NCBI GenBank assembly: GCA_030950375.1
Contig: JAUZRN010000011.1
Coordinates: forward strand, 90,001 to 144,853
Length of the DNA stretch: 54,853 nucleotides
Direction of reading: 5' to 3'
Source of the DNA: Rhodothermus sp.
GTDB lineage: Bacteria > Bacteroidota > Rhodothermia > Rhodothermales > Rhodothermaceae
Positions within the stretch are counted from its first letter, which is position 1. The number at the start of each line of letters is the position of its first letter. Below the pieces are notes generated by a model. That model saw only the letters and a program-made list of their open reading frames with translations. It searched no databases and had not been told where the DNA came from. A program made the position numbers and the translations under genes. This document shows positions 30,559-54,493 of the stretch, one piece after another.

Positions 30559-30583
30559 GGCCCCTTCAGGGGCCTTTTTTTTT
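30559..30583 (+). terminator. Rho-independent terminator of the fadL-like/SGNH unit
   Basis: GGCCCC TTCA GGGGCC hairpin (30559-30574) followed by nine T residues, 33 nt after the SGNH stop. Confidence 0.93.
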
Positions 30584-45768: not shown

Positions 45769-45800
45769 TTGACAAGATCTTTTTTTTAGGTTAGACGTGT
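45769..45800 (+). promoter_or_regulatory. Module 1 upstream element: TTGACA plus T8 tract
   Basis: TTGACA (45769-45774), five bases, eight T residues (45780-45787), then AGGTTAGACG, 65 nt from TTGACA to the peptide ATG. The same layout recurs at 48026 and 49556 before the other two peptide genes. TTGACA suggests a minus-35 element, and the T run would sit in the spacer, where slippage would change promoter spacing. The minus-10 position is not clear. Confidence 0.55.
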
Positions 45801-45833
45801 CGGTTTTTTACTCCCATCCAACCCGGTAGCGCC

Positions 45834-46094
45834 ATGGTACTACACAAGTTGCTGCGATGGCTGCCTGCATGCAATGCCTTCTTCTTTGCAGTCATTCTCT
45901 CCGGCAGCCTGATCTTACTGGACCCGTCCCCGGCCTGGGCCGCTAAATGCAGAGCGGAAGTAACCTGTGGAGACGGCGCTAAAGTATCCTGCGAAGCGTC
46001 GGGTCCTAATTCACAATGCGAAGCAAGCCAGAGAGATGGTGAAGTTTGCTGCTACGACGGGGATGGCTGGTCCCATGGCTTTTGCCGTGAGTAG
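45834..46094 (+). CDS. Small secreted cysteine-rich protein, module 1
   Basis: An 86-residue protein with a signal peptide (basic HKLLR, hydrophobic core about 12-29, cleavage near AWAA-K). The mature part of some 49 residues has seven cysteines (39, 45, 53, 62, 72, 73, 84), including a CC pair, and is rich in Gly, Asp and Ser. I know no family. It lies before a beta-propeller gene and a DsbA-like gene, so it is presumably exported and disulfide-bonded. Its cysteine spacing differs from the peptides of modules 2 and 3. Confidence 0.75.
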   Translation: MVLHKLLRWLPACNAFFFAVILSGSLILLDPSPAWAAKCRAEVTCGDGAKVSCEASGPNSQCEASQRDGEVCCYDGDGWSHGFCRE

Positions 46095-46107
46095 GTGAAA
46101 CGTAGTC

Positions 46108-46141
46108 GGGGGATAGCAGCTTGTCTCTGCTATCCCCCTTT
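46108..46141 (+). terminator. Strong hairpin between peptide 1 and its propeller gene (attenuator or processing site)
   Basis: A perfect 12-bp stem GGGGGATAGCAG/CTGCTATCCCCC with a seven-base CTTGTCT loop, followed by only three T residues. It sits 13 nt after the peptide stop and 19 nt before the propeller ATG. It would allow partial termination or protect the upstream mRNA, giving more peptide than propeller. Confidence 0.6.
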
Positions 46142-46160
46142 GAATCGCCGCAAAAGCGCC

Positions 46161-47216
46161 ATGAAACCCCTGACAGGCTTCCTCCTGCTTCTATTCACTG
46201 CTTCTCAGACTGCGCAGGCCCAAGAGATTCCTTACATCGATCTGTACCCAGACACAGCGCTTACCGTACTGGGCCCGCATTTTTACCTCGACAAAGTCGT
46301 GGCCATTACCTATGCACCGACGCATGGATACTTCATTGGGGACGACGAGCTGAGTCAGATTGCCTGGACAAACCGCCAGTTCCAGCTAATACGTGCGTTA
46401 GGCAAACCCGGAGAAGGTCCAGAAGATTTGATGGGCGTATCCTCCCTTTATCTATGGGGAGATACCCTGTTGGTAGGCACAGGTGGGGTTATCAAAAAAT
46501 TTTTGTTGCCCGATTTTGTATACCTTGATCGTTATCTCATTCGTAGTCGATGCGCGCATTGCGTTCACGTTACGCCTTACGGGATTGTACAAACCGTTGT
46601 CAGCTCCAAAGATCCTATTCGGTTGTATGATCTCCATGGACGTCTTTTGCGTCGCTTCGGACGTATACTGGAACCTGAGCATCCTTCTTCTGCTTTCTTT
46701 AATTTTCGCGCTGGCGTTTTTATAACAGAATCGCAAGACATTATTGCCATTCCGCGCCTGCATCCCCAGATCGAGCGGTACACTTTCGAAGGCAAGATGC
46801 AGGAGATTTTCACGCTAAACCAGCTCCCACTCCTGGCCCGGCTTTTTCAAGAAGCCTGGGATCGCACCCAGGAACTGCAACGCAAACAGCCTTACATGCT
46901 CGCACAGCTCTGGGGGGATGCGGCCTATGCAAAAGGCTGGCTCTATCTGACCGTAGCGATGCAGTGGCCCGATGCCCCTCACATTCAGCATGTGTTGGTC
47001 GTGCGGGTTACGCGTGAACGAATGCAGCTATCGCATATTCTGCGCCTTCACCGTGACCAGACACCGCTTCAGATGGGTCTCCTTGAAGCGGATCATATAG
47101 ATGAGGTATCTCTATCTGCTCGCCTCATCGAAGTCATTCCTCAAACGGGCAAACTGCTGGCCCGGATGTTTCCGGAAGATCTGCTCTACGTCTACACGCT
47201 TCCCGAACAGCCATGA
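46161..47216 (+). CDS. Secreted six-bladed beta-propeller protein, module 1
   Basis: A 351-residue protein with a signal peptide ending AQAQ (about residue 21). The blade motif ALGKPGEGPEDLMG matches the GxGEGPxE(F/L) hallmark of Bacteroidota 6-bladed propellers (PF17170). A CxxC pair (RCAHC) lies in the middle. It is more diverged from the propellers of modules 2 and 3 than they are from each other. A stretch near 46480-46740 is noticeably AT-richer than the flanks. Its stop overlaps the DsbA-like start (ATGA, 47213-47216). Function unknown; propellers usually bind ligands or proteins. Confidence 0.82.
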   Translation: MKPLTGFLLLLFTASQTAQAQEIPYIDLYPDTALTVLGPHFYLDKVVAITYAPTHGYFIGDDELSQIAWTNRQFQLIRALGKPGEGPEDLMGVSSLYLWGDTLLVGTGGVIKKFLLPDFVYLDRYLIRSRCAHCVHVTPYGIVQTVVSSKDPIRLYDLHGRLLRRFGRILEPEHPSSAFFNFRAGVFITESQDIIAIPRLHPQIERYTFEGKMQEIFTLNQLPLLARLFQEAWDRTQELQRKQPYMLAQLWGDAAYAKGWLYLTVAMQWPDAPHIQHVLVVRVTRERMQLSHILRLHRDQTPLQMGLLEADHIDEVSLSARLIEVIPQTGKLLARMFPEDLLYVYTLPEQP

Positions 47217-47902
47217 AGGCCGAACGCCTGCAACTGATCTTCTCCGGCATTCTGGCCGGATGCGCCCTGATTATCACCGGCGCCGTGCTGTACCGACTCC
47301 TGGCTACGCCGGAGGCCCCATCTCCACCTTCTTTCCCTGAAGACTTTGAAACGCTGCCCGCGTTACCGGATTCCCTCTGGGAACCGCTCCTCCAGGGCGG
47401 CCATCGGGTCGGCGCAGCGGAGCCCCAAGTAATTCTGGTGGAATTTCTGGATTACCGGTGTGCCTACTGCCGCCAGATACACCCGACGCTGGAAGCTCTG
47501 CTGGAGGCATATCCCGACCTGCAGATTATCTACCGGCACTATCCGCTGAACCTCAACCGCTCAGCAGCGGCCGCCCGCATTGCCCTCTGCGCCGACGCGC
47601 AGGGGTGGTTCGAACGCATGCACACCCGTCTTCTTACCGCCCAGAAACTGGATGTAGAAAGCTTGCTCTACGATCGCACGGCCTCCGAACGGGCCACCTT
47701 CGATTCGTGCCTGTATGGCAGGGATTCTCCTGTAGACTCCCTGCTGTTGCAGGACATCGCGCTGGCGCGGCGGGTAGGCGTGACCGGCACGCCCACGTTC
47801 TTTTTGAACGGACGCCGCGTGCCGGTAGGCGTTCCGGCCTCCCGACTTCGGGATTACGTCCACCAGGCGCTGCAGCGCGAAAGCCGCCCAGCGCAGCGCT
47901 GA
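47213..47902 (+). CDS. Membrane-anchored DsbA-like thiol oxidoreductase
   Basis: A 229-residue protein with an N-terminal anchor helix (about 8-30), a proline-rich linker and a thioredoxin-fold domain with an inserted helical segment, as in DsbA/DsbG. The active site is Cys83-Ala-Tyr-Cys86 and the cis-proline is Pro194 (TGTPTF). Extra cysteines at 126 and 166 may form a second pair. It is translationally coupled to the module 1 propeller gene and is the only oxidoreductase in the cluster, so it may oxidise or isomerise the cysteine-rich peptides. Confidence 0.9.
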   Translation: MKAERLQLIFSGILAGCALIITGAVLYRLLATPEAPSPPSFPEDFETLPALPDSLWEPLLQGGHRVGAAEPQVILVEFLDYRCAYCRQIHPTLEALLEAYPDLQIIYRHYPLNLNRSAAAARIALCADAQGWFERMHTRLLTAQKLDVESLLYDRTASERATFDSCLYGRDSPVDSLLLQDIALARRVGVTGTPTFFLNGRRVPVGVPASRLRDYVHQALQRESRPAQR

Positions 47903-47927
47903 ATCCCTTCGGCCCTCTTCCTACACA

Positions 47928-47988
47928 CCGGCCAACCTTTCCGACTGATCTGGAGCCCTCCCTTATCTCCAGACCGCCTTCAGAACTA
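47928..47988 (+). pseudogene. Decayed fragment of a cysteine-rich peptide gene
   Basis: The bases CCGGCCAACCTTTCC...GATCTGGAGCCCTCCC...CTCCAGACCGC parallel the module 3 peptide gene at about 49703-49752 (CCGGTCAACCTTTCA...GATCTGGAATCCCTCCC...CTCCAGATCGC). They are offset by single-base indels, and the cysteine codon is lost. No open frame is kept. I read it as the relic of another peptide gene between modules 1 and 2. Beyond 47988 similarity is too weak to claim. Confidence 0.45.
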
Positions 47989-48025
47989 AATGCCCATACC
48001 CATGTGTAAGACGGCACATCCCTTC

Positions 48026-48060
48026 TTGACATAATACTTTTTTTTTGTAGGTTACATGCC
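48026..48060 (+). promoter_or_regulatory. Module 2 upstream element: TTGACA plus T9 tract
   Basis: TTGACA (48026-48031), six bases, nine T residues (48038-48046), then GTAGGTTACATG. Same arrangement as at 45769 and 49556. TAGGTTA occurs after the T run both here and in module 1. Confidence 0.55.
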
Positions 48061-48119
48061 GACTTCTGTCTATCAGCCATTCTACCGAAAAAGCCATGAA
48101 GGTCTGACTTCTTCAATGG

Positions 48120-48386
48120 ATGGTACTTCTTGCATTGCCCTTAATTTTTTCTGCCAACAACCCCAACACCATGGTTCCACTGGAGCCGGCTGCGCCCTGT
48201 CTTCAGACCGCGCAAGCCATTGCCAGATCTTCAGGGACTGGATTGTGCGAAATTCTGTGTCTTCCTATCTGGGAGCCCTGGTATGACGGGCCGGATCGCT
48301 ATGGATGTAACAGTGGTGGAAGTGCAATCTGCCAGGGGATTCTGAAAGATCTGGAATGTCCGGGATGCGTAGGCGGTCCGGAATAA
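48120..48386 (+). CDS. Small secreted cysteine-rich protein, module 2 (start disrupted by in-frame TGA)
   Basis: From the ATG at 48120 the product has 88 residues with seven cysteines (27, 43, 47, 63, 71, 80, 83) and ends CPGCVGGPE. Spacing is C-x15-C-x3-C-x15-C-x7-C-x8-C-x2-C, nearly identical to module 3. An ATG at 48096 in the same frame would give a better signal peptide of the same length as module 3 (MKV, stop, LLQWMVLLALPLIFSA), but its fourth codon is TGA. Either the gene is damaged, or translation restarts at 48120 with a weak signal lacking positive charge, or the base is an error. The last 22 nt overlap the propeller gene. Confidence 0.65.
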   Translation: MVLLALPLIFSANNPNTMVPLEPAAPCLQTAQAIARSSGTGLCEILCLPIWEPWYDGPDRYGCNSGGSAICQGILKDLECPGCVGGPE

Positions 48387-49471
48387 CGCTATTGCTGGGG
48401 TTACTGGGACTGGTAGGAAATAGCTGGCCCGGTCCACTGTCTGCCCAGCAGCCACTGATCGGGGCACAACGGCGATTGCAGCTTGTGCCTCAGGCCCCGA
48501 TTCCATTGCAAGGTACACGTATTGGCGACGTAGAAGAAGTGGTGGCGCATCCAACGCGCCCCCTGTTTTTTGTAATCGACCGCCGACCACCCGGTGTGTA
48601 CAGCTTCGATCATCGGGGACGTTTTGTCCAGCGCTTTGGCAGGCAAGGCGAAGGCCCCCATGAATTTCTGGGGCGGTTACGGGTGGCAGCCTGGCAGGAC
48701 ACCCTGCTGATCCTGGACGGACTGCGTCGTCGGGTGGTTGCCTACCAGGTGGCTACCGGCGCTCCCCTGGCGCTTACCCGACTACCCAGTCCACTGCCGG
48801 CAGCCGTGCAACACTGGAAGCTCTATCGGGAACACCTGATCTTCTACTGGTCCGGATCGCTTCGTCCCCCTCTCGTCGAAGTTTATGATCTGAAGCAGAG
48901 GGCTTTCACCTATGCGCTCCGGGAAAACCTTACCCCGGAGCATCAGATGCTTTTGCGCTATGTGCATAGCGGAGGATTGACCCTCCTGGGCGATTCCCTG
49001 GTACTGGCCATGCCGGCCGATCGGCCGGTGCTCTACTTTCTGGATCTGCGTTCCGGCACGCAGGGACGCTGGCGCTCGCTTTCCGACCCAGCCTTTCATG
49101 CACCGCCGCTTGAAAAGCCGCTTCCTGCCTATGACTTCGAAGAGTGGGTGGCCTACATTACGCGCCGCAGCAGCACCTGCGGGCTGTTCCTGCTCCAGAA
49201 TGGCTATCTCGTCGTTCAGTTAGAGCACGGTACCCGTGAGGAAGCCCGCTGGCTCCGGCTGATCATTCTGGATCCCACTACCCGCCAGGAAATCGACCGC
49301 ATTACGTTCCCGGCTGCCCTGCGGCAACAATATCAGTTGCTCCATCGAAGTGGCATCTTTCTGACAGCACAGGGCAACTGCCTCTACCTTCGGCGCTTTT
49401 TGGAGGAGCAGGACCGCTGGGCGCTCTGGCCCTGGTGCCTGGAGCCCATCCCTTCCAGCAACTCCCCTTGA
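48365..49471 (+). CDS. Secreted six-bladed beta-propeller protein, module 2
   Basis: A 368-residue protein with a signal peptide (RRR then a leucine-rich core, cleavage near LSAQ). The hallmark is FGRQGEGPHEFLG. Blades and the segments STCGLFLLQNGYLVVQLE and FLEEQDRWALWPWCLEP are shared with the module 3 propeller, the two being roughly half identical by eye. The start lies inside the peptide gene, the ATG being formed with the last Cys codon TGC. An ATG 9 nt earlier is also possible. Confidence 0.82.
   Translation: MRRRSGITLLLGLLGLVGNSWPGPLSAQQPLIGAQRRLQLVPQAPIPLQGTRIGDVEEVVAHPTRPLFFVIDRRPPGVYSFDHRGRFVQRFGRQGEGPHEFLGRLRVAAWQDTLLILDGLRRRVVAYQVATGAPLALTRLPSPLPAAVQHWKLYREHLIFYWSGSLRPPLVEVYDLKQRAFTYALRENLTPEHQMLLRYVHSGGLTLLGDSLVLAMPADRPVLYFLDLRSGTQGRWRSLSDPAFHAPPLEKPLPAYDFEEWVAYITRRSSTCGLFLLQNGYLVVQLEHGTREEARWLRLIILDPTTRQEIDRITFPAALRQQYQLLHRSGIFLTAQGNCLYLRRFLEEQDRWALWPWCLEPIPSSNSP
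49401..49447 (+). repeat. 47-bp block identical to 50961-51007
   Basis: Both copies encode the C-terminal LEEQDRWALWPWCLEP region of the module 2 and 3 propellers and are identical in every base, including silent positions. The rest of the two genes is clearly diverged. This suggests recent gene conversion or a constrained sequence. Confidence 0.85.
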
Positions 49472-49555
49472 ACTCGACCAACACTCACATACCCGAACCA
49501 CCTACCGCTCCGCGTTTCCCCGCCTGCCCCTGCATCCGAACATCCTCACCAAGAC

Positions 49556-49582
49556 TTGACAACAAGTTTTTTTTTAACATAC
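49556..49582 (+). promoter_or_regulatory. Module 3 upstream element: TTGACA plus T9 tract
   Basis: TTGACA (49556-49561), five bases, nine T residues (49567-49575), then AACATACG, 82 nt from TTGACA to the peptide ATG at 49638. Third member of the set at 45769 and 48026. Confidence 0.55.
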
Positions 49583-49637
49583 GCAGCGAAGTTTCTTCAG
49601 CAATGCACTTTCCCGGTAACCAATCCGACAGGATATC

Positions 49638-49925
49638 ATGATTGGACACATAGCACGAGCGGCGCTGATCTTGAGCATACCACTGATGCTTTCCGCCCCC
49701 TCGCCGGTCAACCTTTCAGCCGATCTGGAATCCCTCCCCTGCCTCCAGATCGCTCAACAACTGGCTCAGACAGCCCGCATCGATCTATGTGAGCTTGGAT
49801 GTATGGAAATCTGGGAAAATCGATGGGAACCTGCGGGTGCCGTGTGCTATCGGACGAAAGATCAGATCTGTGTAGCTTTGCTCATGGAGTTAGGCTGTCC
49901 ACCATGCAATGGAGGACCCGAATAA
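49638..49925 (+). CDS. Small secreted cysteine-rich protein, module 3
   Basis: A 95-residue protein with a signal peptide (core ALILSIPLMLSA, residues 9-20) and seven mature cysteines (35, 51, 55, 70, 78, 87, 90) ending CPPCNGGPE. Cysteine spacing matches the module 2 peptide to within one residue. Other shared features are the PCLQ start, the LCE(L/I)xC pair followed by (E/P)IWE, and the GGPE end. This is the intact model for the family, which I do not recognise. An odd number of cysteines implies one free thiol or a covalent partner. Its 3' end overlaps the propeller gene by 22 nt. Confidence 0.78.
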   Translation: MIGHIARAALILSIPLMLSAPSPVNLSADLESLPCLQIAQQLAQTARIDLCELGCMEIWENRWEPAGAVCYRTKDQICVALLMELGCPPCNGGPE

Positions 49926-51022
49926 TCAGCGCCCTTATCCTGCTCCTGCCCGGAACAGGCGGCGGTCTTGTTTGCTTTTCGCTTGCTCAACAGTTGACAT
50001 TGGTGGGGGCACAACAGCGTTTTCAGCTCGTATCGCGGTCTCCCATTATAGTCCATGAAAAGCTTGTCGGAGACGTTTTTGATATCGCCTCCCATCCAAC
50101 ACAACCTTTATTCTTTGTGGTTGATCGCCAGCCTCCGGGTGTCTTTGTCCTAACAGCAAACGGACGTTTTCTGAGAAGCTATGGCCGTCAGGGGGAAGGC
50201 CCCGGCGAGTTTCTGGGGCCGCCGTCTGTTACCGTTTGGGGCGACACCCTACTCGTCCTCGATCCTGCACGCAATCGGTTAGAGGCCTATCGAGTGACTA
50301 CGGGCCAGCTACTTACGTTCAGCATGTTGCCCCAGAATCTTCCTGGTTTCCAGCACTGGATCCTTCACAGCAATCATCTGGTCCTCTATTTGTCAGGCCG
50401 GCTTCACGCCGCCCTGGTTGAGGTTTATGATTTCTCGCGACGTCGATATACCCATACGCTTTCCCTCCCCAAGCTTACCCCAGAGCACGACCTGCTATTA
50501 AGCTACATAGGTAGTGGTGGACTGGCTCTGCTGGGTGATTCCTTGGTACTGGCTACTCCGGCTGACCGACCTACCCTTTATTTCCTAAACCTACGTACAG
50601 GCCAGCAGGGAATATGGCTCACGCTCCAGGATCCCGACTTTCGCGTTCAATCGGCCCCTGATCTCGAAAAACTGCTACGCCAGGGCCGGTGGCGTGCTTA
50701 CCAGAAGCAATGGGTCGGCTACCTCACCTCCAATAGCCGTACCTGTGGGCTGTTTGTGCTCGACAATGGACTGCTGGCCGTGCAGCTGGAATATGGACCG
50801 GACCAGCAAAACCGCTGGCTCCGGCTTATCGTTATCGACCTCGCTACACGCCAGGAAATTGACCGCATCACGCTACCCGTCACCGTACGGCAACAGTATG
50901 GCTTGATGGAGTCCATCTTTCGTACTGCGCAGGGGCTATGTCTGTACATTGAGCGCTTTCTGGAGGAGCAGGACCGCTGGGCGCTCTGGCCCTGGTGCCT
51001 GGAGCCCTATTCCCGTCTCTGA
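49904..51022 (+). CDS. Secreted six-bladed beta-propeller protein, module 3
   Basis: A 372-residue protein with a signal peptide (RTRIISALILLLPG core, cleavage near SLAQ). It contains YGRQGEGPGEFLG, STPxxADRP-like ATPADRPTLYFLNL, and the same three conserved cysteines in the C-terminal third as module 2 (RTCGLF, GLCLYI, PWCLEP). The start is set by its correspondence with module 2: the ATG uses the last Cys codon of the peptide gene and gives the same 22-nt overlap. The 258 nt after its stop show no gene or clear terminator. Confidence 0.82.
   Translation: MQWRTRIISALILLLPGTGGGLVCFSLAQQLTLVGAQQRFQLVSRSPIIVHEKLVGDVFDIASHPTQPLFFVVDRQPPGVFVLTANGRFLRSYGRQGEGPGEFLGPPSVTVWGDTLLVLDPARNRLEAYRVTTGQLLTFSMLPQNLPGFQHWILHSNHLVLYLSGRLHAALVEVYDFSRRRYTHTLSLPKLTPEHDLLLSYIGSGGLALLGDSLVLATPADRPTLYFLNLRTGQQGIWLTLQDPDFRVQSAPDLEKLLRQGRWRAYQKQWVGYLTSNSRTCGLFVLDNGLLAVQLEYGPDQQNRWLRLIVIDLATRQEIDRITLPVTVRQQYGLMESIFRTAQGLCLYIERFLEEQDRWALWPWCLEPYSRL
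50961..51007 (+). repeat. Second copy of the 47-bp propeller block
   Basis: Identical to 49401-49447; see that entry. Confidence 0.85.
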
Positions 51023-53374: not shown

Positions 53375-54493
53375 TTATTGCTTGAGCACCACCCGATAGC
53401 GCCCGATCAACCGACGCCCCGGCTCGTCCGACAAGCGAATGTAAAGATGAAACGCCTCGTCCCGCCCCAACACCAATCCAGGCAACGCTAAAGGTTGCTG
53501 CCATTGACCTGAAGTGGCAACAATAACACCATACGGCTCCACTTTCCGGTCGTCCCAGCCCCGCCTCTCAAAATAAAGCGGCCTCAAGTTGAAAAAATGC
53601 GCCAGCACCAGCGTGTCCCCCACAAAAAACACGCGCTTCATGAATGAACTCTGTAACATCAGGTCGTTGAACCGCTCCCGGTCGTTTACTGCCAGCTCCG
53701 CCCGCATCGCTTCCGGAGGAGTTCGCCAGGCAGGATGGTGCAGCGCTATCCGCCGGATCAATTGTCCCTCCCGCTCTCCCAGAACGTATAGTTGCAACTC
53801 CGGCGCCAGCTCATAGACCACTGCGGCCAACCGCTGCGATGGCAGGACATCCACCGCGGCACGGCGCGGCACATAGTCGCCCTCCTGGTAGATCAGAGGA
53901 TATTCGCCAAACCGATAAACAACGCGCGTCAACCCCGTGTCGACCACCGAAAAAGCATGGGTTCCCGGACAGGCCGGCTCAAACCATGACGCGCACGGCT
54001 CATCAATAGCCCCGGAAGGTATTACAATGTGTGCTGCATCTAATGAACGAAACCCCGAATTGAGCCAGTATCCCTCCGGCAGTTGGGGACGATCGATAAA
54101 ACGTCCTGCCCGGCTAAAGCGACTGACCCGACTGTACTCCTGCTGCACATAGACCAGATCACCATGGACCAGCACCTGAGCAACCCGGTAAAGCGTGCCC
54201 GGCTCCTCCGTACCCGGCCGGCCGATAACCTGCACCGGTCGTCCCAGACTGTCAAAGACCACCACCCTCCGTAACCGGAGATCAGGCACATACAATCGGA
54301 ACGGCTGCCATTCCACCTCAACCCATAGAAACTCCCCCAGAAACAACGTATCTGGCTCCTCGAGCCGAAGCGTGTCAACCAAAACCAGCTCGGCCCGAAG
54401 CGCGGTGGGCTTTTCTGCACCACAACCGCACAAAAGGACCCCGGTGACCCCAATCCACAGCCACCGGAGCCCTTTAGTAATACTCCACGCCAC
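53375..54493 (-). CDS. Six-bladed beta-propeller lipoprotein (solitary)
   Basis: A 372-residue protein with lipobox LLCGC (Cys24). Six-bladed propeller character is seen in LRLRRVVVFDSLGRPVQVIG, VSRFSRAGRFIDRPQLP and the C-terminal YLxIRLSDEPGRRLIGRY. It lacks the GEGPxE motif in clean form, the corresponding site reading GRPGTEEPGTL. Unlike the three modules nearby it is lipid-anchored and has no cysteine-rich peptide gene next to it. A disulfide pair may exist in EPCASWFEPACPG. Function unknown. Confidence 0.78.
   Translation of the reverse strand: MAWSITKGLRWLWIGVTGVLLCGCGAEKPTALRAELVLVDTLRLEEPDTLFLGEFLWVEVEWQPFRLYVPDLRLRRVVVFDSLGRPVQVIGRPGTEEPGTLYRVAQVLVHGDLVYVQQEYSRVSRFSRAGRFIDRPQLPEGYWLNSGFRSLDAAHIVIPSGAIDEPCASWFEPACPGTHAFSVVDTGLTRVVYRFGEYPLIYQEGDYVPRRAAVDVLPSQRLAAVVYELAPELQLYVLGEREGQLIRRIALHHPAWRTPPEAMRAELAVNDRERFNDLMLQSSFMKRVFFVGDTLVLAHFFNLRPLYFERRGWDDRKVEPYGVIVATSGQWQQPLALPGLVLGRDEAFHLYIRLSDEPGRRLIGRYRVVLKQ

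What the first reader, a model, noticed from the sequence alone, without database searches (positions are those of the whole stretch)
45769..51022. Three tandem modules of cysteine-rich secreted peptide plus six-bladed propeller, with one DsbA-like enzyme
Each module has the same order: TTGACA/T-tract element, small secreted seven-cysteine protein, secreted propeller. Module 1 adds a membrane-anchored CAYC oxidoreductase by ATGA overlap. Modules 2 and 3 share cysteine spacing and CPxCxGGPE ends. The set looks like a dedicated export, folding and binding system for disulfide peptides. It could serve as a toxin/partner pair, signal, adhesin or metal binder. I know of no described system like it, though small secreted peptides beside 6-bladed propellers occur in gut Bacteroidota.
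Basis: partly seen in the sequence, partly recalled or inferred. Interest (0 to 1): 0.85.

Follow-up and report, generated by a model that had tools for sequence, protein, structure and literature searches.

The report
Paired secreted peptide and propeller genes
A hot-spring bacterium (Rhodothermus) carries dozens of gene pairs, each making a small cysteine-rich exported protein and its own propeller-shaped exported partner; the pairing recurs in distant bacteria, matches no system I could find described, and its function is unknown.

Summary
The three modules are real, but they are a small sample of a larger system. The window's Rhodothermus genome has about 40 six-bladed propeller genes, and roughly two dozen directly follow a small signal-peptide-bearing cysteine-rich ORF. 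Across seven Rhodothermus genomes, 53 of 116 propellers have such a neighbour, against 0 of 113 control genes. Peptide orthologues keep their cysteines and mostly show dN/dS of 0.07-0.38. Nine peptide classes map onto propeller clades with the minimum possible number of changes, so pairs are co-inherited. One class recurs in other Rhodothermia families and in Gemmatimonadota, there also with a TonB-dependent receptor. The DsbA-like gene belongs to module-1-type loci; another class has a membrane-anchored CxxS protein instead. The TTGACA/T-tract element is specific to some classes; its T-run varies from 7 to 43 and differs between orthologues, suggesting a slippage-prone promoter spacer. Corrections: module 2's peptide has an in-frame TGA at codon 4, and a close relative has deleted most of it while keeping the propeller. 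The 'dedicated disulfide system' reading holds only for some classes. Most likely these are cognate exported peptide/propeller binding pairs, used for recognition or antagonism, or for ligand capture. No binding or activity was tested.

The parts
45769..45787 (+). TTGACA-N5-T8 element of module 1, a probable promoter with its T-run in the spacer
45834..46094 (+). Module 1 peptide, 86 aa: signal-like N-terminus, 7 mature Cys, ends RE
   Evidence: orthologue L100 with w 0.14
46161..47216 (+). Module 1 exported propeller, 351 aa from ATG 46161; family member by profile, no Pfam hit
47213..47902 (+). Membrane-anchored DsbA-like protein, CAYC, overlapping the propeller gene by ATGA; kept in all four module-1-type loci
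48026..48046 (+). TTGACA-N6-T9 element of module 2
48096..48386 (+). Module 2 peptide frame: ATG 48096, in-frame TGA at 48105, possible restart at ATG 48120; 7 Cys, CVGGPE end; probably decayed
48356..49471 (+). Module 2 exported six-bladed propeller (PF17170), 371 aa
49556..49575 (+). TTGACA-N5-T9 element of module 3; 8 T in the G006 orthologue
49638..49925 (+). Module 3 peptide, 95 aa, 7 Cys, CNGGPE end; 93% identical in G006, w 0.36
49904..51022 (+). Module 3 exported six-bladed propeller (PF17170), 372 aa; AlphaFold2 pTM 0.72, NHL-like fold
53375..54493 (-). Fourth propeller of the same family (lipobox-like N-terminus), no peptide upstream

Best explanation
Each module encodes a cognate exported pair. 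The small cysteine-rich protein is sent through Sec, folded by disulfides (in module-1-type loci probably with the co-encoded DsbA-like enzyme), and bound by its own six-bladed propeller, which acts as receptor, carrier or protecting partner in the periplasm or at the outer surface. Pairs have multiplied and diversified like recognition or antagonism loci, and some classes sit behind promoters whose spacer contains a slippage-prone T-run, so expression may vary between cells. Shown: adjacency, co-inheritance, purifying selection, promoter association, T-run variation between orthologues. Inferred: export, disulfides, physical binding, cell-surface role, phase variation. Of the possible uses I favour recognition or antagonism (peptide as effector or ligand, propeller as receptor or immunity partner) slightly over ligand capture.
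For: 53/116 propellers against 0/113 control genes have the peptide upstream (Fisher p about 1e-19). Reverse test: all nine 'CExDxC' peptide hits in the genome lie at propeller loci; the same class precedes propellers in other Rhodothermia and Gemmatimonadota. Nine classes need 8 changes on the propeller tree, the minimum; shuffled mean 37.9. Thirteen of 14 finite dN/dS values are 0.07-0.38. DsbA-like gene at all four module-1-type loci. Peptide broken but propeller intact in module 2 of G006 and at C47. T-runs differ in all four orthologous promoters compared and reach 43. Propeller counts in the genus run from 4 to 41.
Against: No binding, secretion, toxicity or expression data. More than half of the family's propellers have no recognised peptide. 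Peptide structure prediction failed (pLDDT 55). Only some propellers have a lipobox-like motif, so one location for all is not shown. Adjacency and co-inheritance fit a shared pathway as well as direct contact. A peptide can be intact beside an interrupted propeller (L087).
Confidence: 0.5

Rival explanations
1. Ligand-capture system: the peptide binds a metal or cofactor outside the cell and the propeller lipoprotein receives it for a TonB-dependent transporter, as BtuG and XusB propellers do for cobalamin and siderophores.
For: In Gemmatimonadota the same peptide class and propeller share an operon with a TonB-dependent receptor carrying CarboxypepD_reg and Plug domains. BtuG structures are among the fold matches. 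BtuG and XusB are surface propeller lipoproteins working with such transporters (PMC10404256; PMC13142918).
Against: No receptor lies beside the window modules. BtuG and XusB are seven-bladed and capture small molecules; the passages read do not pair them with a peptide. Some 40 paralogues in one genome is more than a nutrient route would need.
Confidence: 0.2
2. Two-subunit enzyme: the peptide is a disulfide-rich small subunit on a propeller large subunit, with the thioredoxin-fold protein as maturation factor, by analogy with methylamine dehydrogenase (MauA, MauB, MauD).
For: Same parts list: cysteine-rich small protein, propeller, anchored disulfide enzyme. The Mau comparison rests on my own knowledge.
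Against: The Mau propeller is seven-bladed (own knowledge), this one is six-bladed and NHL-like. No tryptophan is conserved across peptide classes, so a tryptophan-derived cofactor is unlikely. Dozens of diverse pairs per genome do not look like one enzyme.
Confidence: 0.08
3. The peptide is a client or regulator of an envelope disulfide pathway and the propeller a redox scaffold, as in NHLRC2 and SOQ1, which combine a thioredoxin-like domain with an NHL propeller.
For: Profile matches to NHLRC2 and SOQ1 propellers; the NHLRC2 structure has both domains (PMC6107167). DsbA-like or CxxS genes are linked to two peptide classes.
Against: Seven of nine classes have neither gene nearby. The CxxS family has no database match as a thioredoxin and no profile match to the DsbA set.
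Confidence: 0.1

Closest known systems
PF17170 (DUF5128) six-bladed propellers, and the Bacteroides exported propeller BF0058 (PDB 4raa)
   Same: Propellers 2 and 3 match the family above its cut-off; 4raa is the top Foldseek match
   Different: No function is given for that family; here each gene follows a cysteine-rich peptide gene
BtuG and XusB surface propeller lipoproteins with TonB-dependent transporters
   Same: Exported propeller, sometimes a lipoprotein, beside a TonB-dependent receptor in the Gemmatimonadota loci
   Different: Seven blades and small-molecule ligands; no receptor beside the window modules
NVEALA small secreted proteins (PF14055) of gut Bacteroidota
   Same: Small proteins with a hydrophobic N-terminus; from memory, some lie beside six-bladed propellers
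   Different: No peptide matches PF14055 and no Rhodothermus genome searched has a hit
NHLRC2 / SOQ1 (thioredoxin-like plus NHL propeller)
   Same: NHL-type propeller combined with a thioredoxin-fold protein
   Different: One fused protein there; separate genes plus a peptide here, and only in some classes
Methylamine dehydrogenase and its maturation genes
   Same: Disulfide-rich small subunit, propeller subunit, anchored thioredoxin-like enzyme (own knowledge)
   Different: Seven blades, tryptophan-derived cofactor, not a large paralogous family (own knowledge)

Membership tests
PF17170 six-bladed propeller | Match over the curated Pfam cut-off | tested here: met
   Propellers 2 and 3: 36.1 and 34.4 bits against 22.9. 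Propeller 1 has no Pfam hit but belongs by profile
PF17170 six-bladed propeller | Six-bladed, NHL-like fold | tested here: met
   AlphaFold2 model of propeller 3, pTM 0.72; best VIA matches are NHL domains, Z 19.8, and 4raa, Z 17.8. Blade number inferred from these matches
NVEALA (PF14055) | Match to PF14055 | tested here: not met
   No hit for window peptides at E up to 1 or for other genome peptides at E up to 5; no Rhodothermus genome searched has a hit, control Bacteroides positive
DsbA-like oxidoreductase (window 47213-47902) | DsbA/Thioredoxin_4 domain with a CxxC site | tested here: met
   PF13462 2.8e-19, PF01323 1.4e-14, CAYC; nearest solved chains include a copper-sensitivity suppressor protein
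Thioredoxin fold (CxxS gene of the CExDxC class) | Database or profile match to thioredoxins | tested here: inconclusive
   Motif SxxCxx[SC]N and TPQ conserved, but no Pfam, NCBIfam or PDB match and none to the DsbA set
BtuG/XusB-type capture system | TonB-dependent transporter encoded with the propeller | tested here: inconclusive
   Present in three Gemmatimonadota loci; none beside the window modules
Toxin-immunity pair | Peptide inhibits cells lacking the cognate propeller | not testable with these tools
   Needs expression and competition assays; no PADLOC match

The most novel reading that the evidence does not exclude
A previously undescribed polymorphic recognition or antagonism system of exported cysteine-rich peptides and cognate six-bladed propellers, spread over Rhodothermota and Gemmatimonadota, amplified to about 40 propeller loci per genome, and in part switched by slipped-strand changes in poly-T promoter spacers.
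Probability: 0.25. Interest if true: 0.9.

Novelty: categorically new. Interest (0 to 1): 0.77.

Why it matters
A gene pair repeated dozens of times in a 3-Mb genome, with strictly matched partners, purifying selection and its own promoter type, must do something important, yet neither the peptides nor the pairing appears in the databases and papers I could search. If the pairs recognise or attack neighbours, this would be a new class of exported peptide/partner system in little-studied phyla, with ready-made natural sets of matched pairs for testing specificity. A poly-T promoter spacer varying from 7 to 43 would be, as far as I know, an unreported switch in this group.

Tried and rejected
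Chance ORFs: rejected by 53/116 against 0/113 and by dN/dS. NVEALA membership: not met; I could not reach a Bacteroides genome to test NVEALA-propeller adjacency. Known anti-phage defence: no PADLOC match. One peptide superfamily: the CExDxC and GGPE profiles do not align. CxxS gene as a thioredoxin by profile: not supported. A first genome-wide scan with the 32-propeller alignment failed for lack of a conserved stretch, so the later scan leans on the GEGPGEF motif and misses propellers without it. Peptide 3 as a single-sequence AlphaFold2 job gave pLDDT 55 and says nothing on its fold. Control T-run at 30575: part of a terminator-like hairpin and not a pure T-run in relatives, so it is no length control. 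First reading of the Gemmatimonadota receptor loci as lacking a propeller: wrong, it lies further down the operon. Foldseek lists over a thousand matches for this propeller, so the absence of any family from the rows shown means nothing.

Full report
What is in the window. Each has a small ORF with a signal-like N-terminus and seven mature cysteines, followed by an exported propeller; peptide and propeller genes overlap in modules 2 and 3. Propellers 2 and 3 match PF17170; propeller 1 and a fourth propeller at 53375-54493 (-) belong by profile. Module 1 adds a DsbA-like protein with CAYC. The window peptides match no Pfam, NCBIfam or PADLOC family, and the CExDxC class described below matches no solved structure. 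Peptide 2 carries an in-frame TGA at codon 4 of its conserved-position start, noticed in the sequence and seen again by the profile search.

The genome. The window is part of a 3.03-Mb, 68-contig draft. The genus is Rhodothermus: two of its sister genomes match records named Rhodothermus sp. by contig number and length. A profile of the genome's own propellers finds 41 matches in it and 4 to 41 in six sister genomes. I fetched these places and asked, by fixed criteria, which propellers have a small secreted cysteine-rich ORF just upstream: 53 of 116 with enough upstream sequence, against 0 of 113 other genes from the same stretches (Fisher p about 1e-19). The criteria are strict and miss some visible cases, so the true share is higher. 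The count includes near-identical copies, so the p-value overstates the number of independent cases.

Selection. Of 14 orthologous or paralogous peptide pairs with a finite estimate, 13 have dN/dS between 0.07 and 0.38; one pair with nine changes gives 0.77; three more were saturated. Several pairs have dS above 1, so those values are approximate. Cysteines are nearly always kept while the residues between them change.

Co-inheritance. I grouped peptides into nine sequence classes and built a propeller tree of 61 rows. The classes need 8 changes on it, the least possible for nine labels, against a shuffled mean of 37.9. Peptide class and propeller clade are therefore inherited together. One class named for its signal peptide (LAT) falls into two propeller clades, and these carry two different mature peptides; L069 and L071 are 97.7% identical over 214 bases of upstream region and signal peptide and then part, and L083 and L086 share 140 identical bases that end just before different modules. 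This is a mosaic pattern, as if modules were exchanged behind shared 5' regions. Closely related copies make the labels cluster on any tree, so the weight lies in the exactness across deep clades.

Beyond the genus. The CExDxC peptide class was searched independently of propellers: all nine hits in the own genome are at propeller loci, and hits in two other families of the class and in Gemmatimonadota also precede propellers, with tandem peptide arrays in L296 and L297. In three Gemmatimonadota loci the order is peptide, TonB-dependent receptor, then propeller, with a lipoprotein between receptor and propeller in one. A few Aminicenantes loci have a possible pair. The GGPE class of modules 2 and 3 looks genus-specific (one weak outlier).

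Third components. The DsbA-like gene follows the propeller in all four module-1-type loci seen (window, L100, L117, L114), and a Gemmatimonadota locus with another cysteine-rich peptide (L218) also has one. In the CExDxC class, 13 of 14 loci with enough sequence have a different membrane-anchored gene with a CxxS or CxxC motif and TPQ; none of the 39 loci of the other eight named classes has it. I call that gene thioredoxin-like by motif only; no database or profile comparison confirms it.

Promoter. TTGACA-N-T7 occurs at seven distinct sites in the genome, all ahead of a pair. A looser form marks GGPE (6/6), SDG (4/4), DAGC (3/4) and DTC (2/3) loci but not LAT (0/8) or nearly any CExDxC locus (1/19). 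After the T-run many sites read TAGCTT, close to the Bacteroidota -7 element TAnnTTTG (own knowledge), so the run would lie in the promoter spacer. Orthologous promoters differ in run length in all four comparisons (7/9, 9/7, 10/9, 9/8), and one genome has 43 T. In seven genomes there are seven distinct T-runs of 12 or more; four are these promoters, two are terminator-like, one is unrelated. Most genomes are drafts or metagenome bins, so some run lengths may be assembly error.

Decay. In G006 the module 2 peptide is reduced to its last 26 residues while its propeller stays 95% identical. At contig C47 the peptide is frameshifted in the window's genome and intact in G006. The reverse also occurs: L087 has an intact peptide beside an interrupted propeller. 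Loss of the peptide with retention of the propeller is what a toxin/immunity or ligand/receptor pair would allow, but it is not proof.

Structure. AlphaFold2 gives a propeller for module 3 (pLDDT 74, pTM 0.72), closest to NHL domains (Z 19.8), DUF4221 (19.6) and BF0058 (17.8). The peptide model is not usable. No complex could be predicted here.

Peptide ends. Of 60 non-redundant peptides, 29 end in E, 8 in Q and 3 in D, across unrelated classes. Propellers can recognise chain ends in other settings (KLHDC E3 ligases, PMC11568203, title and abstract only), so the C-terminus is a candidate contact point. This is a suggestion only.

Verdict. The best reading is a large family of cognate exported peptide/propeller pairs; recognition or antagonism is slightly favoured over ligand capture. 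I found no description of it in a library of 5.39 million open-access papers, but subscription papers and preprints were not searched.

Noticed in passing
L153, promoter at G004:C1 about 1822944-1822998 (-): A run of 43 T between TTGACA and the peptide gene in a two-contig genome.
   Followed up: partly
L103, L104, L105 (G003 contig ends): A 2-kb module copy 99.7-99.9% identical at three contig ends: recent multiplication or an assembly overlap.
   Followed up: partly
L083 1-140 and L086 228-367: 140 identical bases upstream of two different peptide/propeller modules.
   Followed up: partly
L336, L337, L338 (Gemmatimonadota): TonB-dependent receptor between peptide and propeller; in L337 also a lipoprotein with an HPT motif after its cysteine, like the propellers' HPTxxN.
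   Followed up: partly
L296 (G152) and L297 (G103): Two or three tandem CExDxC peptides ahead of one propeller.
   Followed up: no
P0001-P0006 (alignment A7): Conserved membrane-anchored CxxS family with no match in Pfam, NCBIfam or PDB.
   Followed up: partly
window 53375-54493 (-): Lone lipoprotein-like propeller of the same family without a peptide.
   Followed up: no
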